Below, piece after piece: positions 39,801 to 56,203 of a DNA stretch of 64,000 nucleotides. Under the pieces are notes generated by a model. The model did no database searches, was not told where the DNA came from, and saw only the letters and a list, made by a program, of their open reading frames with translations. The translations under genes were made by a program, and so were the position numbers. The stretch is from Zobellia alginiliquefaciens (GTDB lineage Bacteria > Bacteroidota > Bacteroidia > Flavobacteriales > Flavobacteriaceae): positions 3,968,001 through 4,032,000 of the forward strand of contig NZ_CP119758.1 in assembly GCF_029323795.1 (NCBI RefSeq). Reading direction: 5' to 3'. Each line of letters opens with the position of its first letter. The stretch's first letter is position 1.

Positions 39801-39951
39801 GATCACGGGTATAAGTGCTGAGGAGATTGTAGTTTTAGGAAATGATACGTATCAAGTTCCTGTTTATCTTTTGGAAGATGGTATATATTTTGTTAACATT
39901 GCCAACAACATGGGAGATACAGTTATTATGAAGTTATTGATACAAAACTAA
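33823..39951 (+). CDS. Giant T9SS-secreted multidomain protein: sugar-dehydrogenase-like propeller, PKD, malectin, VCBS
   Basis: The 2042-residue protein has a signal peptide cleaved near residue 26 (VTA|QL). Order of modules: a soluble-glucose/sorbosone-dehydrogenase-like beta-propeller (about 28-450, with FAPDGRIFILDRFGE, WHSGGDMDF and EVGPDGNEAGELGPEGLDE); PKD (about 454-543); a beta-sandwich segment (about 544-785, with a CBM6-like part); an SbsA-type Ig domain (about 785-875); malectin (about 880-1036); an Ig-like domain (about 1046-1140); FG-GAP/VCBS repeats with DxDxDGD calcium loops (about 1150-1520); PKD/REJ-like; malectin (about 1618-1770); PKD/REJ; PKD (about 1870-1947); and a T9SS type A sorting domain (about 1953-2042). 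It should be secreted through the PorSS machinery and may bind or oxidise sugars. It is a paralogue of the 56410-64000 protein. Confidence 0.88.
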   Translation: MKKKYFFKLVFTCLTIFLVGHKTVTAQLTDEFAKVDIVTGLSNATNFKFAPDGRIFILDRFGEILIYKPDEQFTVTAGTLPVYHEHEDGLVGVAIDPDFENNNKIYLHYAPIDFVGYRVSRFSVDGDMVDFSSEEVIIQWNTSRSALWHSGGDMDFDSQGNLYIATGDNTTYGSKLYSPLDEDDSDFSAEKASSNTNDLRGKILRIKPGPGTTYTIPTGNLFAAGTPNTKPEIYVMGARNPYRIFVDKEHNDWLFWGEVGPDGNEAGELGPEGLDEINLTKQAGNYGWPYFSGIDNDPYQISYANPKYYNNPAAPENISKWNTGATVLPSAQEAWIEKFHKCYLAGFRYNYVNDELLDQQRLPAEFDGLFFYFDFNTSRIWAVEMGGDGTIISEEMLSDEVFPGSGNSKDGYIDMELGPDGKMYILAYGAGCCPQDIPEGIGRLIQVNYTGITTNSPPSVVMGADVTYGPLPLTVNFTGDQTTDPNGDSPLSYAWDIDIDGTVDYTTPNISHTYTTKGTYSAQLKVTDPEGAIGAKTIKIYAGNTPTEFNFNSPVDGGFFNWNDDVDFDLVANDAEDGIISCEDVNVVPSLGHENHFHDIGTLDACISTLTLDDGDHQIDGAMDIYYVLNANYTDSDGLISRGQIRVHPKRREAEYFDTQSGVTIIPNTYELEGAKDAIQVDNNSYISFEGRNLMNMNAVKYLVASDNSGSTIELRLDSPTGNVVTTTTIPSTGGNDNWLHVQTPINSVPTGKHDLYFVFKNASSSQDIFRLNYVEFLGDGVSEDKTPPEVHSVQPDGNNVLKVKFSEYVNEGTAENLSNYSISNGITVQSAELQPDGLTVFLTTSLLSADVDYSLSISNVQNISGVSMAAKSFSFFVFEEIRINAGGDQITGPEGEIFKEDEYFNSGSEYGKTVDIVGTDDDELYQSERYTNNKGSFEYQIPVALSGEYDIRLHFAEIFFGVDENQLDKGPGARVFNVVIEGNEVLSNFDILSETDPATALVKEFDNITITDGFASIFFNGVVQSPKVNGIEILSKDTFEGGTATNAKITITSPSNGWDVNKSFEVAFRVDNWVINEDDTHIHYYVDGDLIDKYYGYDPIPFTDLADGEHTIRIELFNADHTGTGIYDEVVVNVTGLITCNETPFPESWVVHEFDPNPYTVVYTFADDDLDGDGLKDIVTGGWWYKNPGTASGNWEKNTVGDSFKNVAHVYDFDDDGDMDLLGTTGEYTGAQLVWAQNDGNGNFTVYENIPAGDTDYYEPFLAGIAGGVFDNTGTYRMAINWNGAESTGSPIQMLTPPNKNNITTQTWDLTDISNDSSGEDIQAGDIDQDGDLDLFQGVNWLRNNGSLNFEKFETGVNDAYSTTADRAQLADFDRDGDLDAVVGQLSLGSGGDGTGPKTVFAWFEAPSDPTQLWIRHDLDSEVNGSLSVFAIDIDFDGDQDIVVGEWRDNYRLIAFENDLCGSGQFNKIILDDGALGYEHHDGARVVDIDADGDLDVVSNGWLKHKVLRIYENTTPLLLDDRPIADAGSDKIISTTSVTLVGSGSDPDGGAIVSYEWSQESGPNVATLSGVTTTELTATNLVDGLYVFRLTVTDEEDETGFDTVSVTKSSTSTITRINSGGTNFIYDGVSWASDQYSNGGSVLTNSIEIANTENDALYQTERYRTQGDLTYEIPVANGEHSVNLHFAEIYYGVPGDGSAGGVGSRVFNIDIEGQKQIENYDIVVAAGGSATAVIEAFNGINVLDGSLTITLTPVTEFPKISGIEIIEPVVEGAPTVDAGEDQMITFPNNSTVISGSGSDSDGGTVTFVWTQESGPNSATLNGETTAELSVTNMEEGVYVFRLTVTDDENEVVFDDVQVTVVPENGLLAIAEVGSTEGSAPLEVTFTGSNSLGDIETYFWDFDNGNTSDEADSATTFLENGTYEVVLTVSSVGGESHSDTVIVTISETIEGEKMGFILEKNPVREGVATIRILNQPEDFMMLGINLHDQQGRLITGISAEEIVVLGNDTYQVPVYLLEDGIYFVNIANNMGDTVIMKLLIQN

Positions 39952-40975: not shown

Positions 40976-43207
40976 TTAGAAATTAACTGATATTTTGCCT
41001 CTTAAATAAAAAGGAATACCTGGTGTAAAATGGATTTCCTCTGTTGGTTCTGTTTCATTGAACAATCTACTTTCCGTGGCAAATTGGGTTTCGTTCCATT
41101 CCGTGTCAAAAAGGTTTTCGACGATAACACCCAATGTCCAATTCTTAATGGAGTAGTTCAAATTTAAATCCGTTACAAAGTAACCTTCTGCAACTATAGA
41201 ATTATCTTCATTGGCAGCTCTGTCTTTAACGTATTTGTAATTGATTCCTCCTGAGAAATTTCCAACGTCTAAAAAGGAAAGTCCTGCAGAGGAAGTCAAG
41301 TCCGGTGCTAGCGGAATTAAATCTTGTCCGTCAGGTTCATCGGTACTTCTAGCATAGGTGTAGTTGACATCTCCGTTGGCGTATAGCCAATCGTTAATTT
41401 GATATCGTAGTCCAAAATCAACACCAAGTCTTCGGGTTTTTCCACTGGGTTCAACTATTCCGGCATCACCAACGTATACAAATTCTTGGTCTAAAAATAG
41501 TGTCCATAAGGCAGCGTTAACAACCAGTTTGTCTATGGGTTTGTAGATAGCGCCTAAGTCCGCTCCATAAGCAAGAGGAAGAATTTCTTTACCGTTATTA
41601 GCGGTTACTACCCTTGTATCATTTGAATGATATCCAATACCTGATTTCGCAAAGAGTTGTAAGTTGGAAGTTGCGGCATAGATTATATTAAGTTTAGGAC
41701 CTAGAAAAAGCTTGTTTTCACTTTTACTATCATAAGTTTCGGTCAGTTTATCTACATAATCAAACTTAAAATAATCCAATCTTAATCCGGTATTCAACGT
41801 CCATTTTTTCTTTTTGTAGGTGACATCAAAAAAGCCATAGGCATTTAATTCATCTACATTACCGTAAGCGAGGCGTTCTAATAATTCTTGCCTGTTTTTG
41901 GTATGCGATAATTGAACATCGTTCACATCATCATATCTAAATCCTATTCCAGTTTCATATTTTAGCTGAGAATCATGGTCACCTACGTGAATGGAATGTT
42001 CATAGCTAGTTTCCGCACCAATAATGGTTCGGTCTTCAAATTGTCTTATTTGATCTCCATTTACAGGGTCATCTAAGAAAAAAGTAAAATTAGAAAAGAG
42101 TTCAAAGTCATACTTGGTCAAATACGCTTTTGATTTAACCCTAGAGTGCTCGTCTAGCTGTTTTGTATGGTTTAGTAGGATATTACTTCTACTTGTATTA
42201 CCTCCTTCTGTATCATCAATTGCACCGAACCTACCAATAAGACCGGCATCTATGGCACGTTGGGGAACTTGACCAGAAGCGTCCCATTTGCTTTGAAAAT
42301 GAGAAAGCGTAATGCTTAAATCTTGATCTTCTCGATTATTGAACGTATACCGACCCATGATGTTAATTCGATTAAAATCCTGAGAAGAATCGAACGGACC
42401 ATCGGTTAACACCAATTCTGTAGCTAAGTAGGCATTACTGAAATCGCTTTCGGCAACTTTAAACATTCCTAATGTACGTAGGGTATTGAACTGACCAACT
42501 TCGGCAGAAATCAAATTTTTGTCTAATTTCCTTTTAGTCTTTAAATCGATATACCCCGCTGTGTTGAAATTTCCTTTGTTGGCGTAATAGGGGCCTTTTC
42601 CAAAGTCAATATTATCAATGGTTTCAGGAATAATAAAATGCATGTCCGAATATCCTTGTCCGTGCGCATGAGAAACCATATTTACAGGAAGCCCATCAAC
42701 ATTGATTGCCAAATCGGTACCATGGTCAATATCGAATCCTCTTAAAAAAATCTGCTCGGCTTTTCCGCCACCAGCATGCTGACCGATAATTAGGCCAGGA
42801 ACTTTACGTAAAATTTCCTGTGAAGATTTTACGGGGTTGGCCTTAACATCCACATTTACAAAGTTGCTTAAGGCATTAACTTTGGAAACCAATACCACTT
42901 GCTCTAATGAAACGGCAGATTCTATTAGGGTTATATTTATTTTGCCATCCAAAAGTTCTTCGGAAATGGTAATTTGATGGTTCTTGTACCCCAGACTGTA
43001 AAAGTAAATAGCATCTCCTACGGAGATATCGTCAAGTTCAAAATAACCGGATACATTTGTATAGGTATAGCCGCCAGTGGTTTTATTGTAAACACCAACA
43101 CCTTCTAGGGCTACTTGGTCTTCGTTTGTTACAGTACCGCTTAAATCATGCGCTCTTATGCCTATGGCGAAAGAAAAGAGTACTATGAATGTAATATATG
43201 TTTTCAT
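40976..43207 (-). CDS. TonB-dependent outer-membrane receptor, probable metallophore importer
   Basis: The 743-residue protein has a signal peptide (cleavage near residue 19), a carboxypeptidase-regulatory-like domain (about 20-95, LSGTVTNEDQVALEGVGVYN), a plug domain (about 115-225, with SQEILRKVPGLIIGQHAGGG and IFLRGFDIDHGTDLAINVDGLPVNM) and a 22-strand-type barrel ending in Phe (GKISVNF). HAHGQGYSDMHFIIPE in the plug is His-rich. It is not a SusC type (no SusD partner) and lies downstream of the NRPS genes and a His-rich protein gene. Uptake of the cluster's own metal chelate is therefore the best guess. It appears to have its own promoter: a terminator at 43289-43310 and a palindrome at 43245-43258 precede it. 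Confidence 0.88.
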   Translation of the reverse strand: MKTYITFIVLFSFAIGIRAHDLSGTVTNEDQVALEGVGVYNKTTGGYTYTNVSGYFELDDISVGDAIYFYSLGYKNHQITISEELLDGKINITLIESAVSLEQVVLVSKVNALSNFVNVDVKANPVKSSQEILRKVPGLIIGQHAGGGKAEQIFLRGFDIDHGTDLAINVDGLPVNMVSHAHGQGYSDMHFIIPETIDNIDFGKGPYYANKGNFNTAGYIDLKTKRKLDKNLISAEVGQFNTLRTLGMFKVAESDFSNAYLATELVLTDGPFDSSQDFNRINIMGRYTFNNREDQDLSITLSHFQSKWDASGQVPQRAIDAGLIGRFGAIDDTEGGNTSRSNILLNHTKQLDEHSRVKSKAYLTKYDFELFSNFTFFLDDPVNGDQIRQFEDRTIIGAETSYEHSIHVGDHDSQLKYETGIGFRYDDVNDVQLSHTKNRQELLERLAYGNVDELNAYGFFDVTYKKKKWTLNTGLRLDYFKFDYVDKLTETYDSKSENKLFLGPKLNIIYAATSNLQLFAKSGIGYHSNDTRVVTANNGKEILPLAYGADLGAIYKPIDKLVVNAALWTLFLDQEFVYVGDAGIVEPSGKTRRLGVDFGLRYQINDWLYANGDVNYTYARSTDEPDGQDLIPLAPDLTSSAGLSFLDVGNFSGGINYKYVKDRAANEDNSIVAEGYFVTDLNLNYSIKNWTLGVIVENLFDTEWNETQFATESRLFNETEPTEEIHFTPGIPFYLRGKISVNF

Positions 43208-43288: not shown

Positions 43289-43310
43289 AAAAAAATAGGC
43301 GTTTACGCCT
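43289..43310 (-). terminator. Terminator overlapping the end of the His-rich gene
   Basis: On the minus strand AGGCG-TAAA-CGCCT is followed by ATTTTTTT. The hairpin begins at the stop codon of the 161-residue protein gene, so the NRPS operon transcript probably ends, or is attenuated, here before the receptor gene. Confidence 0.7.
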
Positions 43311-43795
43311 TAAATGGAAAAAGGGGAGTTTGCGTACCGAGGAGGCTCTTCTAGGATGAAGTAATATCCTAATTTTAGGTTGCCATCCACGGTTTTGAAG
43401 TTTTCCTGTGAATCTACGGATGCCAAGATATTGAAGTGAAAATTATTCGTTGTAATATGTTTGTCAAATTTGAAATCTGTCAGTAATGTGTCTTCAGGGG
43501 AATTTTTGCTGTCCGTACCATCAAAAATTGTATCTAATATTTTAATAATTTTATGTTCGTGAGTGCTATCCGTACTCCTGTGATTATGAGAGTGATGGGT
43601 GTCATTTTCGTAAGAGAATGGAGTATGCTCCATTACGGTATTTGGCATTTCTAAAACATGGGAAACTTCATGAAAGATGCTACTGATTTGTTGATGTAAG
43701 GGGTTAAAAACATAACAAAGGGCAATTACAAGGGCCATAAACTTTATAAGCTCTAGTCTAGCATAATTGCTGAAATGTTCTTTTTTAAGCTGCAT
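43310..43795 (-). CDS. His-rich membrane-anchored protein, probable metal handling
   Basis: I do not recognise a named family for this 161-residue protein. It has an N-terminal membrane helix or signal anchor (about 15-32), then FHEVSHVLEM (about 41-50), where His-Glu-x-x-His resembles a zinc-binding motif, and a His cluster HTPFSYENDTHHSHNH with THEHK (about 57-82). The C-terminal part is probably a small beta domain ending EEPPRYANSPFSI. It lies 35 bp after the NRPS gene and 102 bp before the TonB receptor gene. Composition and neighbours suggest periplasmic metal binding or sensing in metallophore uptake. HEVSH alone does not prove protease activity. Confidence 0.65.
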   Translation of the reverse strand: MQLKKEHFSNYARLELIKFMALVIALCYVFNPLHQQISSIFHEVSHVLEMPNTVMEHTPFSYENDTHHSHNHRSTDSTHEHKIIKILDTIFDGTDSKNSPEDTLLTDFKFDKHITTNNFHFNILASVDSQENFKTVDGNLKLGYYFILEEPPRYANSPFSI

Positions 43796-43830: not shown

Positions 43831-46800
43831 TTATTTTTCCAAAAGAGACGTTAATGTTTCTTCTAAATATTTGGAATATTGAGCTATAGTAGGGTTTTCA
43901 AAGATTTTATTTAAAGGAAAATTATATTCTATTTCTTCATTAATCCGTGCTGTAACACGTATAGCCGCCAGAGAATGCCCTCCTAAGGCAATGAAATCAT
44001 CATGAACGCCAACTTTATTCAGTTGTAAGACTTCTGCCCATATACGCTCAAGAAGAACCTCAATTTCATTTCTCGGAGCAGTATACGAGGTGCTCATGGT
44101 TAATTGCACCGAAGTGAGGTTTTTTAAAGCTTTTTTGTCAACCTTTCCGTTTTTTGTTAATGGCATTTCATCTAAATGTTTAAAAACAGAAGGTATCATA
44201 TGGGATGGCAATTGTTTTCCTAATCTATATTGAATGTCTTTTACGGTTATGTTTTTCTTTCCTGTATAATAAGCAACTAATTTTGAGTTATTTTCCCATT
44301 CTGGTTGAGTTGATGTGTAGCCAATTTCATCCATGATACGCAGCACTTCCTTCTCATCAATTACCTCGTTTATTTCTTCTAGGCTTTCATCTCTTGTTTT
44401 ATGGCCAAGCCTAACGTCCCAGCTATACGGAAAAGAATAGTTGCTATACCCTAAATCCTTTTTATGAACATAAATACCAACTTGGTTAATGAGGCAATTG
44501 GTGGATCTACCGGTATCGGTAGGTCTTACCCAGCTTGCCTTTTCTTTCAGATAGACCAACATTTCTTCTAAACTAACATCACTGAATCTGTAAAAATCTA
44601 CAAATTCCACTTTTTCAAAAACGCTTTCATCTTGAAAAATTGAAACGTCTAAAAGTCGTTTTACCGCGTCTGATTCTTGATGATATAGTTTTCTGGCCTC
44701 TAGAATAGTATCATCTATTTTGGTGGTATCTAAATTGTCATCCCAAAAAAGTTCTTCTGTTAATCGTGTCTCAAAAAACTGTCCGCGACTTAGACCGGTA
44801 ACGATAAATGGAATATTCTTTTCAAGTGCAATTTTAGTACTGAGCGTATAAATGGTCTTAAAACAACCATTGCAGACATTGTGATGTTGATTTAGGCTAT
44901 CAACAAATATTTCGTTCATATGTGGCGTTTCACCGTAAACGTGGTCCACACCAAGCTTTTTAACAATTCGTTCCACGTTTGCTTTCGCTTGTTCGGAGAT
45001 GTAGCCGTTATCCATGGTGAAAGCCAAAACTTTTAATCCCATATTTACAAGCCTAGCTAGAACATAGGTGCTGTCTTTTCCTCCGCTTAATAAGGAAATA
45101 CAGTCATATTCGGAACTTTGAGCTCTTTTTGATGTCAATAGAGACGCCAATTGCTTATCATTTTTAAAGTAACGTTCCGCTTGGTCTTTGTACGTTTCAA
45201 ATGCCGTACATAAGTGGCATACGCCATTCTCGTCAAAATCTGTATTGGGGTAATTTGAGGGTAACCCACATTTTGTGCAATTGACAACTTCCTCCTCCAC
45301 GTTATTTTTGCGGTCTTCTACCAAAACAACCGCACAGTTCTCAATTTCATTAAATCTGTTCAGATTACTTTCAATGTCAGTTAGTTCAATGCGATATCCC
45401 CTAAGTTTCACTTGCTCATCTGACCGCCCTAGGTATTCAAAGTTTCCATTTTGGTTTATTCTTGCTAGGTCTCCTGTGCGATACATTTTATGATTAGGAG
45501 CAAGTGGATTGTCAATAAATTTAGCTTCGGTTGTAAAAGAATCGTTCGCGTAACCATCCGAAAGGCCAGTACCACTAAGGTAGAGCTCACCTATAACACC
45601 TTGTGGTACTTGGTTTTGGTAGGTGTCTAAAATATAGGCGGTCATATTCGAAATTGGTAAACCTATAGGTACCGCTGATTTCGTATGAACATTTGCATCG
45701 TACTCAGAAACTATACAGCCAACGGTAGCTTCGGTTGGTCCATATTCATTGTATATTTTTAATTCAGATGTAAACGTATTTTTAACGGACCTTGCAAGAT
45801 TTGATTTTAATTCTTCACCACCAACTATCATGGTGTGTATGTACGAAGTACTCAGTTCTTTTCCCTTAAAAAGAGTTAAATGGGATGGAGTTAATTTGAT
45901 GCAATTTACGAGATTGTCATCTATTACTTTTAAAAGGCTTACATCGGGCCCTGTCTCCGGTTCTTTATAGATGTTTATTCTTCCACCGCTTACAATTGGT
46001 AAAAATGTAGATGTGATGGTCAAATCAAAACCAATGGATGTAAACAAGGGAAAAATGGATTTGTCGTTTATTCCATAGAAATCTTGCGCCCAGAAAATAT
46101 AGTTTGATAAGGCTTTTTGAGAGATTAAAACTCCCTTTGGATTTCCAGTACTTCCAGATGTATATAATATATACGCTAGGCTTTCTGGTAAGATTTCTGT
46201 GTTTGGATTAGTAATTGGTTGCTTGCCAATACTTAGGCTTTCCTTCTCAACATCTAAAACACCTAAATCTGGTAATTCTAATTTTGATATGAGATTGGAT
46301 TGGCTTATTAGAAGACTACTTTCTGAACTTGAGATGATATATTTTATTCGCTCCGCGGGGTAATCTGAAGCAATAGGTATAAAAGCCGCACCCGTTTTTA
46401 GGACAGCTAAAACACTAACTAAATAGTCTGTACTTCTTTGAAAGTGAAGCGCTATTCTACTATTTTTGGTTACGCCTCTGTCTCTTAAATAATGAGCTAA
46501 TTGGTTCGCCTTTTTGTTAAGCGCGTTATACGTAAGTATTTCATTTTTAAATTGTAAGGAAACTTTGTTTGGGTTGTTTGCAGCATGCCTTTCAAACGTT
46601 TCAATTACGGATTGAAAAGTACTGGAAGGAGGTTCTTCTGTAGGCTTGGGCGTAGAAGATAATAAACTAGGCCTGTAAATGGATTGGTCAAAATTGTCCA
46701 AAAATGAATCTAAAAGGTTGATAAAATGAGAAGGCATTTCTTTGGCCGTTATTTCAGAAATGCTACTACAATTGGTATCAAAAGCAATTTTAAATTCACC

Positions 46801-47967
46801 ACTTTTGTTCATATCGTACACATGGGTGCGTAAGGTATGGTTGCTATCCATATGGTCAGGATGTAACCACTCCGTTTTGGTGGGAAATCCGCTAAAATCT
46901 GGAAAATCGGCATTAATGAAATTCAATATGGTATTGAAGCTGCTATTCGTCTTTTCAGTAGTACTGCCTGGGCGAGCGTTTCTTAAATAGGAGTTGGTCT
47001 CAATTTTAACCCGATTAAAAAGACTAACAAAAGTGTCTTCATCTTCAATTTCTACAACTAATGGCAGTACCTCTATAAATAGCCCGGCAGTTTTTTGAAA
47101 ACCTCTGGTAGCTCTATTATGTGCAGGTGCTCCAATAGCAATTTTGTTTTGATTGCTTATTCTGTGGATGTAAGTGAAGTACAGCGTTAAGAATATATTG
47201 AACAGCGTTAAGTCTTCTGTCCACCCTCTAAATTCTTTATGTTTTGCAAGTTCACGAAGCTTCAGGGAGCGTTCTACGCCAAGTTCTACTATAGTTCGTC
47301 TTGCTCTAGTTGTTTGATTGGTTTTTTCTCCGAATAATTGGGGCGTTTCTAAAAGATTCTTAGTTTTTTCTTTCCAATAGGTATAACTATCGTTGTTCTT
47401 TTTAGTTGCTCTTTGGTCTTGTTCAAATTCAATATAGTTTGAGAACGTTGGAAAGTGTTCAGTTGTAGGAGTAGTATTCGTAACTTCTTCCGAATAAAAA
47501 GCGTTCATTCTATTGTAGAGAATAGAATTAGAAACGGCATCGGTGACTAAATGGTGCAGTTTTAAAAACCAGATATAATTTGTGGAACTTTGTTTAAGAA
47601 GAACACTGTCAAATACACGTTTTGAAATATCCATATGGTGGATAGTACGCTCGTGAAGCCACTTTTCCATATTCTGAATATTATCTGAAGCGCTAAAGTC
47701 TAGATATTCGAGTTTAAAGTGCCCATCACTTAATATAGTCTGATTGGGGACACCTTTTTCTTCGGAAAATACAGTACGCAGTATATCTGTAGAGGCAATT
47801 AATTTCTGAAAAGCCTTTTCAAAAGCAGCCTTATCAATAGCACCGTTTATCTCAAAAGTATAGACCACATTATGAAGCGGGACATCAGGATGCATTCGCT
47901 GACCGGCCCAAAGGGCAGATTGACTTTTAGTTAGCGGTAGAAATGTATCTTTTTGAGTGTTCGTCAT
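43831..47967 (-). CDS. NRPS C-A-PCP with a WbpG-like PP-loop domain inserted in the A domain
   Basis: The 1378-residue protein has a condensation domain (about 10-430; HHLVTDA at 138-144) and an adenylation domain (from about 450; YTSGSTGNPKG 602-612, NEYGPTEATVG 740-750, YRTGDLAR 829-836, GRSDEQVKLRG 847-857). Residues about 890-1225 are an insertion: a zinc ribbon (C897/C900 and C917/C920), then LLSGGKDSTYVL (959-970), the N-type ATP-pyrophosphatase PP-loop, a second CxxC (C1032/C1035), and WDVRLGHKTRDE, as in N-acetyl-sugar amidotransferases of the WbpG type. The A domain then resumes to NGKVDKKAL (1273-1281), followed by a carrier domain with LGGHSL (Ser1332). Pocket residues read DLTKIGEVG(K), which I recall as Asn-like. 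The gene starts 2 bp after the carrier-protein gene. On-line modification of an Asn/Asp residue is inferred. Confidence 0.93.
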   Translation of the reverse strand: MTNTQKDTFLPLTKSQSALWAGQRMHPDVPLHNVVYTFEINGAIDKAAFEKAFQKLIASTDILRTVFSEEKGVPNQTILSDGHFKLEYLDFSASDNIQNMEKWLHERTIHHMDISKRVFDSVLLKQSSTNYIWFLKLHHLVTDAVSNSILYNRMNAFYSEEVTNTTPTTEHFPTFSNYIEFEQDQRATKKNNDSYTYWKEKTKNLLETPQLFGEKTNQTTRARRTIVELGVERSLKLRELAKHKEFRGWTEDLTLFNIFLTLYFTYIHRISNQNKIAIGAPAHNRATRGFQKTAGLFIEVLPLVVEIEDEDTFVSLFNRVKIETNSYLRNARPGSTTEKTNSSFNTILNFINADFPDFSGFPTKTEWLHPDHMDSNHTLRTHVYDMNKSGEFKIAFDTNCSSISEITAKEMPSHFINLLDSFLDNFDQSIYRPSLLSSTPKPTEEPPSSTFQSVIETFERHAANNPNKVSLQFKNEILTYNALNKKANQLAHYLRDRGVTKNSRIALHFQRSTDYLVSVLAVLKTGAAFIPIASDYPAERIKYIISSSESSLLISQSNLISKLELPDLGVLDVEKESLSIGKQPITNPNTEILPESLAYILYTSGSTGNPKGVLISQKALSNYIFWAQDFYGINDKSIFPLFTSIGFDLTITSTFLPIVSGGRINIYKEPETGPDVSLLKVIDDNLVNCIKLTPSHLTLFKGKELSTSYIHTMIVGGEELKSNLARSVKNTFTSELKIYNEYGPTEATVGCIVSEYDANVHTKSAVPIGLPISNMTAYILDTYQNQVPQGVIGELYLSGTGLSDGYANDSFTTEAKFIDNPLAPNHKMYRTGDLARINQNGNFEYLGRSDEQVKLRGYRIELTDIESNLNRFNEIENCAVVLVEDRKNNVEEEVVNCTKCGLPSNYPNTDFDENGVCHLCTAFETYKDQAERYFKNDKQLASLLTSKRAQSSEYDCISLLSGGKDSTYVLARLVNMGLKVLAFTMDNGYISEQAKANVERIVKKLGVDHVYGETPHMNEIFVDSLNQHHNVCNGCFKTIYTLSTKIALEKNIPFIVTGLSRGQFFETRLTEELFWDDNLDTTKIDDTILEARKLYHQESDAVKRLLDVSIFQDESVFEKVEFVDFYRFSDVSLEEMLVYLKEKASWVRPTDTGRSTNCLINQVGIYVHKKDLGYSNYSFPYSWDVRLGHKTRDESLEEINEVIDEKEVLRIMDEIGYTSTQPEWENNSKLVAYYTGKKNITVKDIQYRLGKQLPSHMIPSVFKHLDEMPLTKNGKVDKKALKNLTSVQLTMSTSYTAPRNEIEVLLERIWAEVLQLNKVGVHDDFIALGGHSLAAIRVTARINEEIEYNFPLNKIFENPTIAQYSKYLEETLTSLLEK

Positions 47968-47969
47968 TA

Positions 47970-48224
47970 TTATGATTGCTTTGTTTCAGTATCGCGTTTA
48001 CGCTTTATATATTCCAAAATATGACTGATAGTCATGAAATTTTCAATAGTCATTTCCTCGGGAGCCACTTTTATCTCCCCTTCATTTTCAATAAAAAGCA
48101 CCAATTGTACCATTCCAACAGAGTCTACGAGGCCAGAGCCTAATAAGTCTTCGTTTAGACCTATTTCTTCAACTGTTTCTGTTGCTAAGTCACTTTTTAT
48201 ATAGTCTATGATCTTATTTTTCAT
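47970..48224 (-). CDS. Stand-alone acyl/peptidyl carrier protein
   Basis: This 84-residue acidic helical protein has GLVDSVGMVQL (about 31-41), with Ser35 as the phosphopantetheine attachment site. The start overlaps the stop of the upstream adenylation-enzyme gene by 4 bp, and the NRPS gene begins 2 bp after its stop, so all three are translationally coupled. It should be loaded by the stand-alone adenylation enzyme, primed by the PPTase at 55493-56203, and deliver the first building block to the condensation domain of the 1378-residue NRPS. Confidence 0.9.
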   Translation of the reverse strand: MKNKIIDYIKSDLATETVEEIGLNEDLLGSGLVDSVGMVQLVLFIENEGEIKVAPEEMTIENFMTISHILEYIKRKRDTETKQS

Positions 48225-50178: not shown

Positions 50179-51438
50179 ATGAAAAAACTATTACTACCAC
50201 TTATTTTTGGACTCTTTTTGTTGGTCCCTATTGTTACGTTCGCTCATCAACCCAAACAAAGTTTAATATACCTTCGGATTTATGAGAAAACGGGTATTGA
50301 AGGTCGTTTTGAGGTCAACGCCAATGAACTTGTCAATGTCTTTGGCTTGGATGTTGGGCTGCATCCAAGTATAGAGCAGATAAGACCTTACCAAGATAAA
50401 ATCCAAGCCTATTTACTTGAAAATGCTAAGTTTTCATCAGAATTAGGAGCGTATCAGATTGTATTTACAGGAGAAATGTCAAAGTTAAACCTGTCTTATG
50501 GGGATTTTGTCAACTTCCATTTTCGACTAGAAAATTCAGAAAATTTACCGGATAGCCTTACATTGGATTATGATGCGTTTTTTGATGAAGACCCTACTCA
50601 TATGTGTCTTGTGGCAATGGAGTATAATTGGAAGGCAGGCTTGATAAACAATGAGCATATTGTAGCTTTATACCTATCGGAAGGGGAGAGAAATGGCACT
50701 TTCTCTATTAAAGAAACATCTTTGTGGAAAGGTTTTCTAGCTATGGTGCAACAAGGAATATGGCATATCTGGATAGGTATGGATCATATTCTATTTTTGG
50801 TGGCGTTGATATTGCCATCCGTGGTACGAAGACGAAAGAAAAATGGAGTTACGGGTGCACCCGTGGACAAAGGTCAATTCAATATTTGGGGTTGGGAACC
50901 AGTTAAAAAGTTTAGGCCGGCTTTTATCTACATTCTTAAAATTGTAACCTTCTTTACGATTGCCCATACTATTACACTTAGTCTGGCATCTCTGGAGATA
51001 ATTAACCTTCCTTCTAGGGTGGTAGAATCCATTATTGCCTTTTCTGTAGGTCTTGCTGCTTTTCATAATATTAGGCCCATATTTAAAGGTGAAGATTGGG
51101 TAATTGCTTTTGTCTTTGGTCTCTTTCACGGCTTTGGTTTTGCAAGTGTTTTGGGAGATTTAGGTTTTAAAGGGGAGTACTTGTCATTATCTTTAGTTGG
51201 GTTTAATGTGGGAGTGGAGATTGGTCAGATTGCAATCATAGCATTGATTTTTCCAATTCTATATTTTATAAGGAATAACAAATACTACTCTAGATTTCTG
51301 GTATGGCTTTCCGTAGTTTTGATAGTTATTTCTGCGTATTGGCTTATAGAAAGAGCTTTTGATATTGATTTGCCTTTGGATGAGTTTATCAACAGAAATA
51401 TTTTATACCCTGTGGCGAATTTTGTTGGTTTAAAGTAA
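50179..51438 (+). CDS. HupE/UreJ-type membrane protein, putative metal transport
   Basis: The 419-residue protein has a signal peptide (cleavage near residue 22, after FA), an extracytoplasmic domain (about 23-185) and a membrane domain of about six helices (185-400). GIWHIWIGMDHILFLVALI (about 193-211) is the His-rich first-helix signature of the HupE/UreJ_2 family. FHGFGFASVLGDLGF (about 314-328) is the second conserved His block. HupE/UreJ proteins are linked to nickel or cobalt entry, and the Bacteroidota form often neighbours metal TonB receptors. It is first in the plus-strand arm of the cluster and 21 bp ahead of an NRPS gene, so it may handle the metal delivered by the metallophore. 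Confidence 0.82.
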   Translation: MKKLLLPLIFGLFLLVPIVTFAHQPKQSLIYLRIYEKTGIEGRFEVNANELVNVFGLDVGLHPSIEQIRPYQDKIQAYLLENAKFSSELGAYQIVFTGEMSKLNLSYGDFVNFHFRLENSENLPDSLTLDYDAFFDEDPTHMCLVAMEYNWKAGLINNEHIVALYLSEGERNGTFSIKETSLWKGFLAMVQQGIWHIWIGMDHILFLVALILPSVVRRRKKNGVTGAPVDKGQFNIWGWEPVKKFRPAFIYILKIVTFFTIAHTITLSLASLEIINLPSRVVESIIAFSVGLAAFHNIRPIFKGEDWVIAFVFGLFHGFGFASVLGDLGFKGEYLSLSLVGFNVGVEIGQIAIIALIFPILYFIRNNKYYSRFLVWLSVVLIVISAYWLIERAFDIDLPLDEFINRNILYPVANFVGLK

Positions 51439-51459: not shown

Positions 51460-54400
51460 TTGAAAGAAAGCACTAAAAATAGTTCGCTATTAAACCGATG
51501 GAAAAACCGGGAGACTAAGGAATCTACGTCATTGCAGATACCTAAGGTGCCTGTTGATGCTCAAATTCCTTTGTCTAGCGGTCAACAGCGTATCTGGTTT
51601 TTACAACAATTATATCCTGATAACCCCTTCTATAATTACTCTGAGGCGCTGACTTTTGAAGGAAAACTGAATGTTGATGTATTAAACAAGAGCCTCAATT
51701 ATATTTTTGAGCATAATCAGGGTCTAAGGTCATATTATCCTACTATTGAAGGTGTTCCCATTCTTAAAGTGGATGATGGTATACCGAACCTTAAGGAGTT
51801 TGATGTGAGTCATTTAACGGAATTTGAAGCAAGGGAAGAGGCTAGTAATCTAATGCACAAGCAATCATCCTTGCCTTTTGATTTGTCCGAACCCGGTTTG
51901 GTGCGTGTATCTTTAATAAAACATACACCAAACAGATTTGTTCTTTTCTTTACCATGCACCATATTATTATAGATGAATGGTCTATTGATGTTTTAAAGC
52001 AACAGTTAGCGAACATATACCTAAAGTTGCTCTCTGATGAATCGTTAGAAGCTGTTTCTGAAACTTTGCAATACTCGGATTATGCCCATTGGGAGCGAAA
52101 TACTCCAATAGATACCAAGCAGTTGGAATATTGGAAGCAAGAACTCTCCGGAGATATTCCTCTCTTGAATTTACAAACCGATAATGTAAGACCTTCAAAA
52201 CCGGCTTTTAGGGGAAAGCAACAGACACTGCATTTAGGTGCAGATTTCTCTGCTAGGGTTTTAAATACTTCCAAGGAAATGGGGACAACACCTTTTGTTT
52301 TCTTGCTCACGGCATATTATCTGTTTTTATATAAGTATACTGGTCAATCGGATATTTTAGTGGGTACGCCTATTGCAAACCGCAGCACAAAATCACTTGA
52401 TAAGGTGCTCGGGTTTTTTATTAATACAGTGGTGTTGAGAAATAGAGTCCATGCGGATGCTATATATTCAGAATTGATTCATGAGGTAAAAAAAAATACG
52501 CTTTCTGCCTTTTCAAACAAAGATGTACCTTTTGATGTTCTCGTGAAGGAATTAAAAGTAGAACGGTCATTGGCCGTGAGTCCGTTTTTTCAGGTGATGT
52601 TCTTGTATCACTCATCTACTGAAACTCCTTCATTTGGAACGGATTTACGTTTAGTAAATGAAGCTGAATTTGACACAGAAGTTTCTAAGTTCGATTTAAC
52701 CTTGTCCATTTCCGAATCTAACGGACTCCTTTCATTAGCTTTTGAATATGACACAGATTTGTTTGAATCTGATACCATTACGCGGTTTCTTCAGCATTAT
52801 AAAATAGTATTGGAGGGAATGATCTCCAATCCTAATGGAAAGGTGGCTAACCTATCCATGATGACCTCGGGAGAAAAAAATATATTGCTTCCTGAGCCAG
52901 CTAAAAGTAATACACATTTTGCATCGTATAAAGCTATTCATCACATTATAGAAGATGTAGCTCAAAAGTTCCCTCAGAATAAAGCATTGACCTTTAACGG
53001 AAGTTCAATAAGCTACCAAGAGTTGAATGCACGAGCAAATACATTCGCTTTTGCCGTTCTTCAAAAAACAAAGAAGCGCAATGAAATGGTAATGCTTTGC
53101 ATGGATAGGTCAATAGAGATGATAGTGGCGCTATTGGGCATCTTAAAAGCGGGTTGTGCCTATCTGCCAATGGATCCCAAATATCCTATGGAAAGGCTGA
53201 ATTTCATCTTGGAAGATGCTAATTGTAACATTGTGGTTACCAATAGCAGTTTAGCAAAAGTTTTTGAAGAAACAAATAAGCATATCATTTTAACTGATAC
53301 GTTGACAACCACTGAATTGCAAAAAGTAATTTTGCCCGATGTGGACGAAAATGATTTAGCTTATGTCATTTATACCTCTGGCAGTAGCGGAAAGCCCAAA
53401 GGCGTACCCATAACTCATAAAAACATAATCAATTCTACAGCGGGGAGATTGGAGTTTTATACGCACGATCCGAGTGCGTTTTTGTTGCTGTCCTCCATCT
53501 CTTTTGATAGTTCAAAGGCCGGAATTTTTTGGACCCTTTGTACAGGGGGGAACCTCATACTTACTGAGAATAGGATTGAACAAGATATTACTAAAATTGA
53601 GAAATTAGTATGGGATCATAAAGTGAGTCATACGCTTATGCTTCCTTCTTTATACGGAGTTATTTTAGAGCATGGGGATCTTTCCAAATTAAAAAGTCTT
53701 CATACGGTAATAGTAGCGGGCGAAGCTTGTGGGCGGAATTTACGAGAGCTCCATTTTAAAAACCTGCCAACTGCAAGTCTATATAATGAATATGGTCCTA
53801 CGGAAGCTACTGTTTGGTGCATCGCACATAAAGTTGAAGCAACTCATGATTCTGAAATCGTTCCTATTGGAAAACCCGTAGCCAATGCAGGGATATACCT
53901 ACTGAATTCGTCCAAAGATATTGTTCCCTTTGGTGCAGTGGGAGAAATATATATTGGTGGAACGGGAGTTTCCAAAGGGTATCTCAATAGAAAGGAACTA
54001 ACGGAAAACGTGTTTTTAGATAACCCCTTTAGAATCGGCTCCAAAATATATAAAACGGGCGATTTAGGGAGGTACAGAAATGACGGTACTATTGAGTTTT
54101 TGGGAAGGGTAGATCAACAAGTTAAAGTTCGTGGATTTAGAATTGAGCTAGATGAAGTGGAGAAAACCATTTTGGAATTTAACACTGTAACAACTGTCGT
54201 AGCAACGGTTGAAGATAACAAACGCTTAATCGCTTACGTTATGGCAAGTGAAAATATTAGAATAGGTGAACTAAAATCAGATTTAAAAGCGAGGTTGCCA
54301 GAATACATGGTGCCTACACAAATCATTCAGGTAAGTGAGTTCCCGCTTTTGCCCAACGGAAAGGTGGACAAGGTGCGTTTAGGAACTGTTCAACCGGTTG

Positions 54401-55482
54401 AACCAGAGCTAAAAGAGAGGACAATTGAACGACCTGCTACGGAATTGGAAAAGAAAATGTTGGCTATTTGGAAAGAAGTTCTTGATTTGTCTGAAATTGG
54501 ACTTCATGAGAATTTCTTTGATATAGGAGGAGATTCTATATTGAGCATACAGGTCATTTCAAAGGCAAAAGCTGTTGATATGCAGCTATCACCTAATCAA
54601 CTATTTGAATGTCAAACGATTTCTGAACTCGTGCGTAATTTGGAATTAAAAAGTGTTAGGGAAGAGGAAATATTGAATGGAACAAAATTCAAACACTTAG
54701 TTCCTATTCGTTCCAAAGGTGCTAAACCACCATTGTTTTGTTTGCATTCTGGTGGAACTCATTTCTTTTACTATAATGAGTTTGCCAACCATTTAAAAGA
54801 AAATAGACCCGTGTATGCGCTACAAGCCTCTGGACATGAAGATCAGCTTACTTTACATAGAAGTGTTCATGAAATGGCGGTCAGTTTCATTCAGGAAATT
54901 AAAAAAGTGCAACCTAATGGACCTTATCACTTTATTGCATATTGCTACAATACGGCAATAGGAATGGAGGTTGTGAGGTTATTGGATGAGTCTTCGGATA
55001 AGCCAAATCTTATTGTTGCGGATACCATGGCGGACTATCTTAGTTTGTTTGCGGCATCCAGGACTAAAGTACGTACAACCGCTTTTTTTGAGCGATTTAA
55101 AAAAAGACCCGTAGATGCTGTCCGTCGTTTGGTTAAGTCAAAACTGATTTACCCCTTCAAAGAAAAATATAAAACGCTGAAGAGTAGCGGAAGCCAAAAA
55201 CTGATTAGAATTCTTCATAACAATCATATTAAATTATATCAAGAATATGAGTGGAAATCTGTAGCGAGCAATATTCGTTTGTTATTGACGGAAAAACCCG
55301 GTAGTGATTTTAATACTCAGGTCATTGGCTCGTGGAAGAAAATGACAACTAAAGAAGTTGTAATTGTCCCGGTTGAAGGGCATCATGATAAGCTTTTTGA
55401 AGATTCAAAAATGGTGCGCAAAACCGCTATTGCCGTAGATGCTTGTATGGTTGAGTTTGAAACTAGTCAGAAAAAAGGTTAA
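51460..55482 (+). CDS. NRPS C-A-PCP-TE, terminal module
   Basis: The 1340-residue protein has a condensation domain (about 35-470; HHIIIDEWS at 167-175), an adenylation domain (about 490-970; YTSGSSGKPKG 638-648, NEYGPTEATVW 776-786, YKTGDLGRY 864-872, GRVDQQVKVRG 882-892, NGKVDK 966-971), a carrier domain (Ser1026 in DIGGDSIL) and a type I thioesterase (about 1078-1335). The pocket reads roughly D-S-A-M-I-A-E-V-W, which I cannot assign. The thioesterase nucleophile elbow is AYCYN with Cys1162 instead of GxSxG; His1308 or 1309 and Asp1188 complete a plausible triad. The start is TTG, as an in-frame TAA lies at 51436-51438 and the first internal ATG is past residue 130. It should accept the intermediate from the other NRPS and release the product. 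Confidence 0.93.
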   Translation: MKESTKNSSLLNRWKNRETKESTSLQIPKVPVDAQIPLSSGQQRIWFLQQLYPDNPFYNYSEALTFEGKLNVDVLNKSLNYIFEHNQGLRSYYPTIEGVPILKVDDGIPNLKEFDVSHLTEFEAREEASNLMHKQSSLPFDLSEPGLVRVSLIKHTPNRFVLFFTMHHIIIDEWSIDVLKQQLANIYLKLLSDESLEAVSETLQYSDYAHWERNTPIDTKQLEYWKQELSGDIPLLNLQTDNVRPSKPAFRGKQQTLHLGADFSARVLNTSKEMGTTPFVFLLTAYYLFLYKYTGQSDILVGTPIANRSTKSLDKVLGFFINTVVLRNRVHADAIYSELIHEVKKNTLSAFSNKDVPFDVLVKELKVERSLAVSPFFQVMFLYHSSTETPSFGTDLRLVNEAEFDTEVSKFDLTLSISESNGLLSLAFEYDTDLFESDTITRFLQHYKIVLEGMISNPNGKVANLSMMTSGEKNILLPEPAKSNTHFASYKAIHHIIEDVAQKFPQNKALTFNGSSISYQELNARANTFAFAVLQKTKKRNEMVMLCMDRSIEMIVALLGILKAGCAYLPMDPKYPMERLNFILEDANCNIVVTNSSLAKVFEETNKHIILTDTLTTTELQKVILPDVDENDLAYVIYTSGSSGKPKGVPITHKNIINSTAGRLEFYTHDPSAFLLLSSISFDSSKAGIFWTLCTGGNLILTENRIEQDITKIEKLVWDHKVSHTLMLPSLYGVILEHGDLSKLKSLHTVIVAGEACGRNLRELHFKNLPTASLYNEYGPTEATVWCIAHKVEATHDSEIVPIGKPVANAGIYLLNSSKDIVPFGAVGEIYIGGTGVSKGYLNRKELTENVFLDNPFRIGSKIYKTGDLGRYRNDGTIEFLGRVDQQVKVRGFRIELDEVEKTILEFNTVTTVVATVEDNKRLIAYVMASENIRIGELKSDLKARLPEYMVPTQIIQVSEFPLLPNGKVDKVRLGTVQPVEPELKERTIERPATELEKKMLAIWKEVLDLSEIGLHENFFDIGGDSILSIQVISKAKAVDMQLSPNQLFECQTISELVRNLELKSVREEEILNGTKFKHLVPIRSKGAKPPLFCLHSGGTHFFYYNEFANHLKENRPVYALQASGHEDQLTLHRSVHEMAVSFIQEIKKVQPNGPYHFIAYCYNTAIGMEVVRLLDESSDKPNLIVADTMADYLSLFAASRTKVRTTAFFERFKKRPVDAVRRLVKSKLIYPFKEKYKTLKSSGSQKLIRILHNNHIKLYQEYEWKSVASNIRLLLTEKPGSDFNTQVIGSWKKMTTKEVVIVPVEGHHDKLFEDSKMVRKTAIAVDACMVEFETSQKKG

Positions 55483-55492
55483 TCCATTCCCT

Positions 55493-56203
55493 ATGAAATT
55501 AACCGAAAACGACGCACATGTCTGGAATTTTAAAGTGAGTGATTTTGATGAAATGGGCACTTATTTAAAATTGCTATCTCTTGATGAAAAAGAAAGGGTT
55601 ACTCGGTTTAAATTTGAAAAAGATAGGAAAACCTACATTTTAGCGAGAGGGTTGTTAAGAGTCTTATCTGGACGCTATTTGAACGTTTCTCCGGAAAAAA
55701 TCCACTTTAAATACAGCGAATATGGAAAACCGGACTATAACCTAGAAACGTCAATTAAGTTTAATGTATCTCATTCGGGAGAACTTATTGTTTTAGTCTT
55801 TGTGAAAAATAGTACCATTGGTATAGATGTTGAAAAAATCAAAACTGATTTTGACGTATTGAAACTAGCAGAAAATTTTTTCTCGTTTAAGGAAATAGAG
55901 ATGTTAAATGATGTGCCCAAAAATGATTTACACAGGGCCTTCTATTGTTGTTGGACCAGAAAAGAATCTTTTATCAAGGCAAAGGGTATTGGTCTTTCTT
56001 TTCCTTTAGCTTCGTTTACAGTCTCTTTGGAGGATGAAAATGCGGAATTGTTACGTACGGATTGGAATCCTCAAGAAAAAAACCAATGGAAGCTGTTTTC
56101 TTTCGGACTGCAGAATGACTATGTGGGTGCTATTACGGTCGCTACTGGAATCCGGTCCGTATTGTACTTCAATCTCGAGGCTTTTCTAACAAAAATGAGC
56201 TAG
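55493..56203 (+). CDS. Sfp-type 4'-phosphopantetheinyl transferase
   Basis: From the ATG at 55493 the protein has 236 residues; the frame is open back to 55439, but that would overlap the NRPS gene. Motifs are FNVSHSGELIVLVF, IGIDVEKIK (Mg-binding Asp/Glu) and WTRKESFIKAKGIGLSFPL, the two hallmark blocks of Sfp-type enzymes. It transfers phosphopantetheine from CoA to the Ser of carrier domains. It begins 10 bp after the NRPS stop and should activate the carrier protein and both NRPS carrier domains of this cluster. Confidence 0.93.
   Translation: MKLTENDAHVWNFKVSDFDEMGTYLKLLSLDEKERVTRFKFEKDRKTYILARGLLRVLSGRYLNVSPEKIHFKYSEYGKPDYNLETSIKFNVSHSGELIVLVFVKNSTIGIDVEKIKTDFDVLKLAENFFSFKEIEMLNDVPKNDLHRAFYCCWTRKESFIKAKGIGLSFPLASFTVSLEDENAELLRTDWNPQEKNQWKLFSFGLQNDYVGAITVATGIRSVLYFNLEAFLTKMS

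What the first reader, a model, noticed from the sequence alone, without database searches (positions are those of the whole stretch)
44293..45300. Zinc-ribbon PP-loop ATP-pyrophosphatase inserted inside an NRPS adenylation domain
Residues about 890-1225 of the 43831-47967 NRPS lie between the A8 block and the A10 Lys block and form a full second enzyme: two CxxC pairs (897/900, 917/920), the PP-loop SGGKDST (961-967), another CxxC (1032/1035), C1158 and a WDVRLGHKTRDE block. This resembles stand-alone WbpG-type N-acetyl-sugar amidotransferases, which use ATP to activate a carbonyl for attack by nitrogen. A tailoring domain at this hinge is known for methyltransferases and oxidases; a PP-loop domain there is, as far as I know, functionally undescribed. 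It could turn a carrier-bound residue into an amidine, thioamide or other N/S-modified group. No glutaminase partner is encoded nearby, so the nitrogen or sulphur donor is an open question.
Basis: partly seen in the sequence, partly recalled or inferred. Interest (0 to 1): 0.92.

Follow-up and report, generated by a model that had tools for sequence, protein, structure and literature searches.

The report
Asparagine-modifying domain inside peptide synthetase
A marine Zobellia bacterium carries, inside a peptide-assembly enzyme, a second ATP-using domain of a kind already known to turn attached asparagine into a nitrile or into isoasparagine; new here are a probable iron-sulfur site in that domain and its place in a conserved, perhaps metal-scavenging, gene cluster.

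Summary
In detail: residues 890-1225 of the minus-strand NRPS (43831-47967) are a complete zinc-ribbon PP-loop domain between A8 and A9 of an adenylation domain. The fold is NASAT/WbuX-like, but the fusion is not undescribed: it is the AMDH (aminomutase/amide dehydratase) domain characterised in CysH of cystobactamid synthesis, which turns carrier-bound L-Asn into beta-cyano-L-alanine or isoasparagine. The host A domain has an asparagine code, shared within one position by all 60 rows scored. New points: (1) AMDH domains carry a CxxC...C triad aligned with the [4Fe-4S] ligands of LarE at matching spacing. In 44 sampled free-standing relatives the triad is all-or-none (22 with three, 22 with none). 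This could explain the brown colour of CysH, whose cofactor its authors left open. (2) The 24 fused domains placed on a tree form one group; some free-standing triad proteins lie in other NRPS clusters. (3) In Flavobacteriaceae the module sits in a conserved cluster with a proline-type starter A/ACP, a His-coded C-A-T-TE, a TonB receptor, a His-rich protein and a HupE/UreJ protein. I predict an X-(cyanoAla or isoAsn)-His tripeptide, perhaps a metallophore. New member of a known kind, with a testable cofactor prediction.

The parts
43831..47967 (-). NRPS module C-A(AMDH insert)-T, 1378 aa
46651..47946 (-). Condensation domain, residues 8-439 (HHLVTDA at the active site)
   Evidence: motif read
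45310..46596 (-). Adenylation core, residues 458-886, specificity code D L T K I G E V G (Asn)
   Evidence: code assignment PMC12283262 section 12; code positions mapped by recalled GrsA numbering
44293..45300 (-). AMDH (aminomutase/amide dehydratase) PP-loop insert, residues 890-1225
45208..45279 (-). Zinc-ribbon tetracysteine C897/C900...C917/C920
   Evidence: kept in 58-59 of 59 rows; same pattern as the Zn site of 8WEX (PMC10607449 passages)
45067..45087 (-). PP-loop SGGKDST, residues 961-967 (ATP site)
   Evidence: SGGKDS in 59 of 59 rows
44863..44874 (-). C1032xxC1035, predicted [4Fe-4S] ligands 1 and 2
44494..44496 (-). C1158, predicted third [4Fe-4S] ligand (STNC motif)
   Evidence: 58 of 59 rows, the other cut off; all-or-none with C1032/C1035 in free-standing relatives
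44143..44283 (-). C-terminal A subdomain after the insert, residues 1229-1275, with A10 Lys1275
   Evidence: read
43864..44052 (-). Thiolation (carrier) domain, residues 1306-1368
47970..48224 (-). Stand-alone acyl carrier protein, 84 aa
   Evidence: PF00550
48221..49798 (-). Stand-alone adenylation enzyme, code D P F Y L A L L C, proline-type
   Evidence: in the PDB the best stand-alone enzyme is L-proline:carrier ligase 6o6e (2.2e-70), below NRPS modules such as linear gramicidin synthase A (4.6e-106)
51460..55482 (+). NRPS C-A-T-TE, code D S A L I A E V W (His)
   Evidence: His assignment PMC12283262 passage
55439..56203 (+). Phosphopantetheinyl transferase
50179..51438 (+). HupE/UreJ_2 membrane protein
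43310..43795 (-). 161 aa protein with a His-rich stretch, no Pfam family at 0.001
40976..43207 (-). TonB-dependent receptor

Best explanation
The insert is an AMDH domain working in cis. The host A domain loads L-Asn on the T domain. The PP-loop site then spends a second ATP to adenylate the side-chain amide oxygen of carrier-bound Asn; loss of AMP leaves the nitrile beta-cyano-L-alanyl-S-T, or a related route gives isoasparaginyl-S-T. No outside nitrogen or sulfur donor is needed. I predict that C1032, C1035 and C1158 hold a [4Fe-4S] cluster beside the ATP site, whose open iron acts as a non-redox Lewis acid on the amide. The modified residue is joined to a proline-type starter from the stand-alone A/ACP pair, passed to the His-coded C-A-T-TE protein and released as an X-(cyanoAla or isoAsn)-His tripeptide, perhaps re-imported with a metal through the TonB receptor. 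Without a CysJ-like hydroxylase the nitrile is somewhat more likely. Shown here: anatomy, fold, conservation, codes, gene order. Shown by others for CysH: dehydration in vitro, isomerisation by domain deletion in vivo. Inferred: adenylation chemistry, Fe-S cluster and its role, product, metal. The confidence given is for the core claim, an AMDH domain acting on carrier-bound Asn to give nitrile or isoAsn.
For: Fusion with an Asn-type A domain: 53 of 60 scored A(AMDH) rows read DLTKIGEVG and 7 differ at one position (the rows include the window twice and some loci fetched twice; L038 not scored). The code is treated under Asp/Asn and said to be compatible with 3-cyanoalanine (PMC12283262 section 12). 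CysH loads Asn and dehydrates it in vitro only with AMDH present; AMDH deletion abolishes isoAsn and cyanoAla products; CysH is brown. The Myxococcota homologues L037, L038 and L096 fall in the same group as the window domain (24 fused rows one group, 95/98). L038 lies beside a TauD dioxygenase, the superfamily to which I assign CysJ by its alpha-ketoglutarate chemistry, and L037 beside an O-methyltransferase. Fe-S site: CxxC lies 71 residues after SGG, against 70, 70, 70, 70 and 73 in five LarE proteins (a sixth, L073, was not picked up by the script); hhalign pairs it with the LarE CxxC (96.3%, E 1.8e-9); HMMER pairs it with the CxxC of 8cnz, mmLarE-[4Fe-4S] (title). LarE of Thermotoga binds [4Fe-4S] by Cys92/95/172 (passages). 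The triad is all-or-none in 44 free-standing relatives, 22 and 22, with 3 changes on the tree, 2 of them forced by well-supported branches. His code and starter.
Against: No activity was tested. The window insert is only 50-51% identical to the L037/L038 inserts, and CysH itself was not in hand. QueC, which also makes a nitrile, is not known to me to use an Fe-S cluster (recalled), so the cluster's role is unexplained. The triad is not confined to AMDH (22 of 44 free-standing relatives), so it may be inherited and idle. CysH's authors looked for a CxxCxxxC motif, did not find one and speculated only on an unnamed metal cofactor. In the cysJ deletion, Asn- and isoAsn-containing products were the named major derivatives beside substantial nitrile, so nitrile is not assured. 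No Rfam match in 36000-58000; the metal link rests on gene neighbours alone.
Confidence: 0.75

Rival explanations
1. A [4Fe-4S]-dependent sulfur transferase in cis: the open iron carries a hydrosulfide that replaces the oxygen of the Asn side chain, giving thio-asparagine, a thioamide metal ligand.
For: Triad aligned with LarE; Foldseek neighbours after NASAT are TtuA with Fe-S, YcfA and LarE; the cluster carries TonB, His-rich and HupE/UreJ genes.
Against: The characterised relative CysH gives nitrile and isoAsn; no thioamide is reported in the parts read; no sulfur-carrier gene among the 15 window proteins scanned.
Confidence: 0.1
2. An amidotransferase: ammonia attacks the activated Asn amide to give an amidine.
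For: Closest free-standing family and fold is NASAT.
Against: Score below the TIGR03573 cut-off (138.9 against 203.2); the triad is absent from the 6 Flavobacteriaceae NASAT-like proteins examined (6 of the 11 non-fused matches), though present in half of a wider sample; no HisH/HisF-type partner among the 15 window proteins scanned; no amidine reported for CysH in the parts read.
Confidence: 0.05
3. Within the AMDH reading, isoasparagine rather than nitrile is the main product in Zobellia, for example through an aminosuccinimide-type exchange of amide and thioester.
For: CysH makes isoAsn in vivo, and after cysJ deletion an isoAsn product is still one of two named major derivatives, at a lower isoAsn/Asn ratio.
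Against: In vitro CysH with Asn alone gives the nitrile, and nitrile formation rises when CysJ is removed; no CysJ-like gene among the 15 window proteins scanned.
Confidence: 0.3
4. Catalytically dead or merely structural insert.
For: None found.
Against: The PP-loop and all cysteines are kept, and the insert is more conserved than its host in 47 of 47 proteins compared.
Confidence: 0.02

Closest known systems
AMDH domain of CysH (cystobactamid), PMC7966384
   Same: PP-loop domain inserted in an Asn-loading A domain; SGGKD motif; the authors note numerous homologues, all in A domains predicted for Asn.
   Different: CysH is a stand-alone module acting with CysJ and CysQ and the shuttle CysB; here the domain is in a C-A-T elongation module of a three-residue line with a His-coded module and metal-uptake-like genes. 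The CxxC...C triad was not mentioned in the parts I read.
AlbIV (alb04, albicidin)
   Same: Asn activation and proposed dehydration to beta-cyanoalanine (PMC8949500 passages); the CysH domain is 69% identical to it (PMC7966384).
   Different: Pathway and product; sequence not fetched here.
NASAT / WbuX / WbpG (TIGR03573), structure 8WEX
   Same: Zinc tetracysteine + PP-loop fold; best fold and profile match.
   Different: Free-standing, sugar substrate; the triad is absent from the six Flavobacteriaceae ones examined; score below the cut-off.
[4Fe-4S] sulfur insertases LarE (8cnz) and TtuA
   Same: PP-loop plus CxxC...C triad; the CxxC of LarE at the same offset.
   Different: The five LarE proteins examined have no N-terminal tetracysteine; sulfur transfer; low overall similarity (TIGR00268 27.9 bits, cut-off 150).
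QueC (7-cyano-7-deazaguanine synthase)
   Same: PP-loop enzyme that ends in a nitrile (recalled); weak Pfam/NCBIfam hit.
   Different: Free-standing, different substrate, score far below the NCBIfam cut-off (27.3 against 150.3).

Membership tests
AMDH domain (CysH type) | Inserted in an A domain between A8 and A9 | tested here: met
   split C-terminal subdomain also in the model (motif names recalled)
AMDH domain (CysH type) | Host A domain with Asn code | tested here: met
   D L T K I G E V G, assignment in PMC12283262
AMDH domain (CysH type) | SGGKD ATP motif | tested here: met
   59 of 59 rows
AMDH domain (CysH type) | Common descent with the cystobactamid-type domain | tested here: met
   One group with the Myxococcota homologues L037, L038 and L096 (95/98; rooting not tested); these stand in for CysH, whose own sequence was not in hand
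AMDH domain (CysH type) | Dehydratase / aminomutase activity on T-bound Asn | not testable with these tools
   needs protein MS
NASAT (TIGR03573) | Curated score cut-off 203.2 bits | tested here: not met
   138.9 bits for the insert
NASAT (TIGR03573) | Zinc tetracysteine CxxC-Xn-[GN]xCxxC and PP-loop | tested here: met
NASAT (TIGR03573) | Glutaminase-type ammonia partner beside it (recalled for WbpG) | tested here: not met
   none among the 15 window proteins scanned with Pfam; the rest of the window was not scanned
[4Fe-4S] PP-loop sulfur transferase (LarE/TtuA) | CxxC...C triad after the PP-loop | tested here: met
[4Fe-4S] PP-loop sulfur transferase (LarE/TtuA) | LarE family score (TIGR00268 cut-off 150) | tested here: not met
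   27.9 bits
[4Fe-4S] PP-loop sulfur transferase (LarE/TtuA) | Bound cluster and sulfur transfer | not testable with these tools
   needs spectroscopy and assay

The most novel reading that the evidence does not exclude
AMDH domains are [4Fe-4S] enzymes embedded in NRPS adenylation domains: a hydrosulfide on the open iron attacks the adenylated Asn amide, making a thioimidate that collapses to a nitrile in CysH but is kept in the flavobacterial line as thio-asparagine, giving a Pro-thioAsn-His metallophore.
Probability: 0.1. Interest if true: 0.88.

Novelty: new member of a known kind. Interest (0 to 1): 0.5.

Why it matters
How AMDH turns an amide into a nitrile or rearranges Asn was left open by its discoverers, who saw a brown protein and did not find the CxxCxxxC iron-sulfur motif they looked for. 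The triad found here names three residues and a cofactor to test, and ties AMDH to a wider set of free-standing PP-loop proteins that, in the 44 sampled, split cleanly into triad and no-triad classes. The flavobacterial cluster is a conserved candidate source of a short nitrile- or isoAsn-containing peptide with a possible role in metal uptake.

Tried and rejected
Thioamide formation was my first reading once the LarE-like triad appeared. It dropped to a rival when the CysH work was found, because that domain is the same kind and gives nitrile/isoAsn.

I first took the triad to be special to AMDH, because 6 of 6 Flavobacteriaceae NASAT-like proteins examined lack it. Wider sampling refuted that: 22 of 44 free-standing relatives have it.

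Acyl-CoA dehydrogenase looked like a shared partner of the insert (17 loci). It is not one family: the seven Bacteroidota ones are 47-92% identical to each other and the one searched (L017) is a prolyl-ACP dehydrogenase type (4irn, PigA/RedW), so they fit the starter A/ACP; those of Rhizobiales/Gemmatimonadetes are another group (26-31% identity across). None was found in the Zobellia cluster.

No Rfam match in 36000-58000. The A+AMDH model has low interdomain certainty (pTM 0.54), so nothing is said about the relative position of the two ATP sites. No model coordinates were available, so the distance of the three Cys from the PP-loop was not measured. A paper on copper TonB receptors (PMC12914433, passages) did not mention HupE.

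Literature limits: only open-licence PMC papers were searched. That I saw no Fe-S proposal for AMDH rests on the listings of searches and on the parts of papers read; subscription papers (for example Cociancich 2015, Baumann 2014) were not read. No search found a Zobellia metallophore paper (a listing of 8 of 223).

Full report
What is there. The frame 43831-47967 (minus strand) encodes one 1378-residue protein: Condensation 8-439, adenylation core 458-886, an insert 890-1225, the end of the adenylation domain 1229-1275 and a carrier domain 1306-1368. The insert starts after the A8 motif RGYRIEL and ends before the A9/A10 motifs (motif names recalled); guest domains of A domains are generally nested between a8 and a9 (PMC8949500, passage).

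What the insert is by sequence and fold. NCBIfam's nearest model is TIGR03573 (WbuX, N-acetyl sugar amidotransferase), 138.9 bits against a cut-off of 203.2; all 21 members of alignment A2 match it. Profile comparison with six NASAT-like proteins gives 99.9% and E 3e-32. The model (pLDDT 87.6, pTM 0.88) finds NASAT 8wex first (E 2.9e-12, TM-score by query length 0.59-0.61), then, with lower TM-scores (0.29-0.42), TtuA with iron-sulfur, YcfA and LarE-[4Fe-4S] among others. So the PP-loop fold is settled.

It is a known kind. Gross et al. 2021 (PMC7966384; abstract, passages and the whole of section 7 seen) describe the same fusion in CysH and name it AMDH. CysH with the domain turns loaded L-Asn into beta-cyano-L-alanine in vitro; without the domain it does not. 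Domain deletion in the heterologous producer abolishes products with isoasparagine or cyanoalanine. They report numerous homologues, all in A domains predicted for Asn, none linked to a known product, and a dark brown protein whose cofactor and mechanism are open. A review (PMC8949500, passages) tells of the earlier proposal for albicidin.

Distribution. Genome contigs gave 40 loci: Zobellia, Pseudozobellia, Pricia, Gelidibacter, Euzebyella, Robiginitalea and other Flavobacteriaceae, Rhodohalobacter, Saprospiraceae, Cytophagales, Microvirga, Bradyrhizobium, Mesorhizobium, Gemmatimonadetes, Acidobacteria, Myxococcales. Of 299 Flavobacteriaceae genomes 34 match, 24 as fusions (own genome included); the other ten hold short NASAT-like or weak matches. 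Of 395 genomes drawn from the phylum, 2 match at 1e-30, one being the window's own. In the family of the Bradyrhizobium genome 1 of 248 (the centre itself) has the fusion; in the phylum of the Corallococcus genome 3 of 193, the centre included. The window is Zobellia: a same-genus genome (G236) has its match at the same contig coordinates as the named Z. uliginosa locus L004.

Codes. The code of the AMDH-bearing A domain is D L T K I G E V G; 53 of 60 scored rows are identical and 7 differ at one position (two rows are the window, several loci are held twice, L038 was not scored). PMC12283262 section 12 treats DLTKIGEVGK under Asp/Asn and says it is also compatible with 3-cyanoalanine. The neighbouring C-A-T-TE protein reads D S A L I A E V W, in that paper's His section (passage); 16 further loci with a complete read are the same within one position, and two are cut off after six positions that agree. 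The stand-alone A enzyme reads D P F Y L A L L C; in the PDB NRPS modules score best, and the best stand-alone enzyme is L-proline:carrier ligase 6o6e. In seven other Bacteroidota loci (L017-L020, L024, L034, L041) an acyl-CoA dehydrogenase of one family (47-92% identity) sits near that pair; the one searched, L017, is of the prolyl-ACP dehydrogenase type. Zobellia has none in the cluster, so its starter is called only proline-type.

Cluster. Of 26 Bacteroidota loci (L002-L024, L034, L035, L041), 24 have the stand-alone A enzyme, 24 a related TonB receptor (in L024 only 30% identical and on the other strand), 23 the HupE/UreJ protein and 21 a recognisable His-rich small protein within the DNA held (some loci are cut by contig ends). 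These neighbours suggest metal uptake; this is inference from gene order. In the rhizobial loci the set is smaller: phosphopantetheinyl transferase, TubC_N-thioesterase (not seen in L031), A(AMDH)-T, acyl-CoA dehydrogenase, so there Asn may be the only building block.

A probable iron-sulfur site. Besides the zinc ribbon, the insert keeps C1032, C1035 and C1158 in all 58 complete copies aligned (window and duplicate loci included). In five LarE proteins from the phylum the CxxC lies 70, 70, 70, 70 and 73 residues after SGG, here 71 (a sixth LarE locus, L073, was not picked up by the script). 8cnz is mmLarE-[4Fe-4S] (title), and the Thermotoga LarE binds [4Fe-4S] through Cys92/95/172 (PMC9283937, passages). 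The six Flavobacteriaceae NASAT-like proteins examined lack the triad, but the triad is not unique to AMDH: among 44 free-standing relatives 22 have all three, 22 have none and none has one or two. The sample leans to AMDH-like proteins and holds near-copies; the tree needs 3 changes, of which well-supported branches force 2, with warnings about long branches. All-or-none behaviour is what a shared ligand set predicts. This could explain the brown colour of CysH. Whether the cluster is present, and whether it matters for catalysis, is untested.

Origin. With 24 fused, 8 free-standing triad and 6 no-triad rows, the fused domains form one group (95/98), with six of the free-standing triad proteins next to them at weaker support (85/81); the root is a midpoint and long branches are flagged. 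Two such proteins (in L102 and L104) lie in rhizobial NRPS clusters with a stand-alone A enzyme, an asparagine-synthase-like protein, an acyl-CoA dehydrogenase and a C-A-T protein whose code is not Asn. These may be trans-acting relatives.

Mechanism. I commit to side-chain amide adenylation by the second ATP site followed by loss of AMP to the nitrile, with [4Fe-4S] as a non-redox Lewis acid. Nitrile is somewhat favoured over isoAsn because CysH with Asn alone gives the nitrile in vitro and nitrile product appears in vivo when cysJ is deleted; against this, the same deletion still gave isoAsn and Asn products as the named major derivatives. No CysJ-like gene was found among the 15 window proteins scanned. 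My odds: domain kind about 0.9, nitrile rather than isoAsn about 0.6, bound [4Fe-4S] about 0.65, metallophore about 0.45.

Verdict. Real, well conserved, of known kind. The value lies in the cofactor prediction, the free-standing relatives and the flavobacterial cluster, for which I found no published product in the searches made (listings).

Noticed in passing
L102:6377-15256 and L104:1236-10039: Free-standing triad PP-loop proteins (relatives of AMDH) inside rhizobial NRPS clusters with a stand-alone A enzyme, asparagine-synthase-like protein, acyl-CoA dehydrogenase and a C-A-T protein with a non-Asn code (DVANxALIY).
   Followed up: partly
L061-L066, L090-L094, L098-L100, L105-L134: Free-standing PP-loop proteins related to N-acetyl sugar amidotransferases split into two classes, with and without a LarE-like CxxC...C triad (22 and 22 of 44).
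   Followed up: yes
L025, L027-L031, L039: Rhizobial clusters with a single A(AMDH)-T module, a TubC_N-thioesterase, an acyl-CoA dehydrogenase and a PPTase: perhaps a one-residue Asn-derived product. In L031 a 367 aa frame on the other strand stands where the thioesterase would be.
   Followed up: partly
L037 and L038: Myxococcota homologues; the upstream synthetase has A domains whose codes begin with A rather than D, both have an O-methyltransferase-like gene upstream, and a TauD dioxygenase follows in L038: probably cystobactamid-type clusters.
   Followed up: partly
window 50179-51438: HupE/UreJ_2 protein conserved beside the NRPS genes in 23 of 26 Bacteroidota loci; its metal is unknown.
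   Followed up: no
window 33823-39951: 2042 aa protein with sorbosone dehydrogenase, malectin, CBM6 and PKD domains and a Por secretion tail.
   Followed up: no
window 152-391 (minus): Another PP-loop match of the genome (LarE model, E 2.3e-6) in a 623 aa open frame near the window edge.
   Followed up: no
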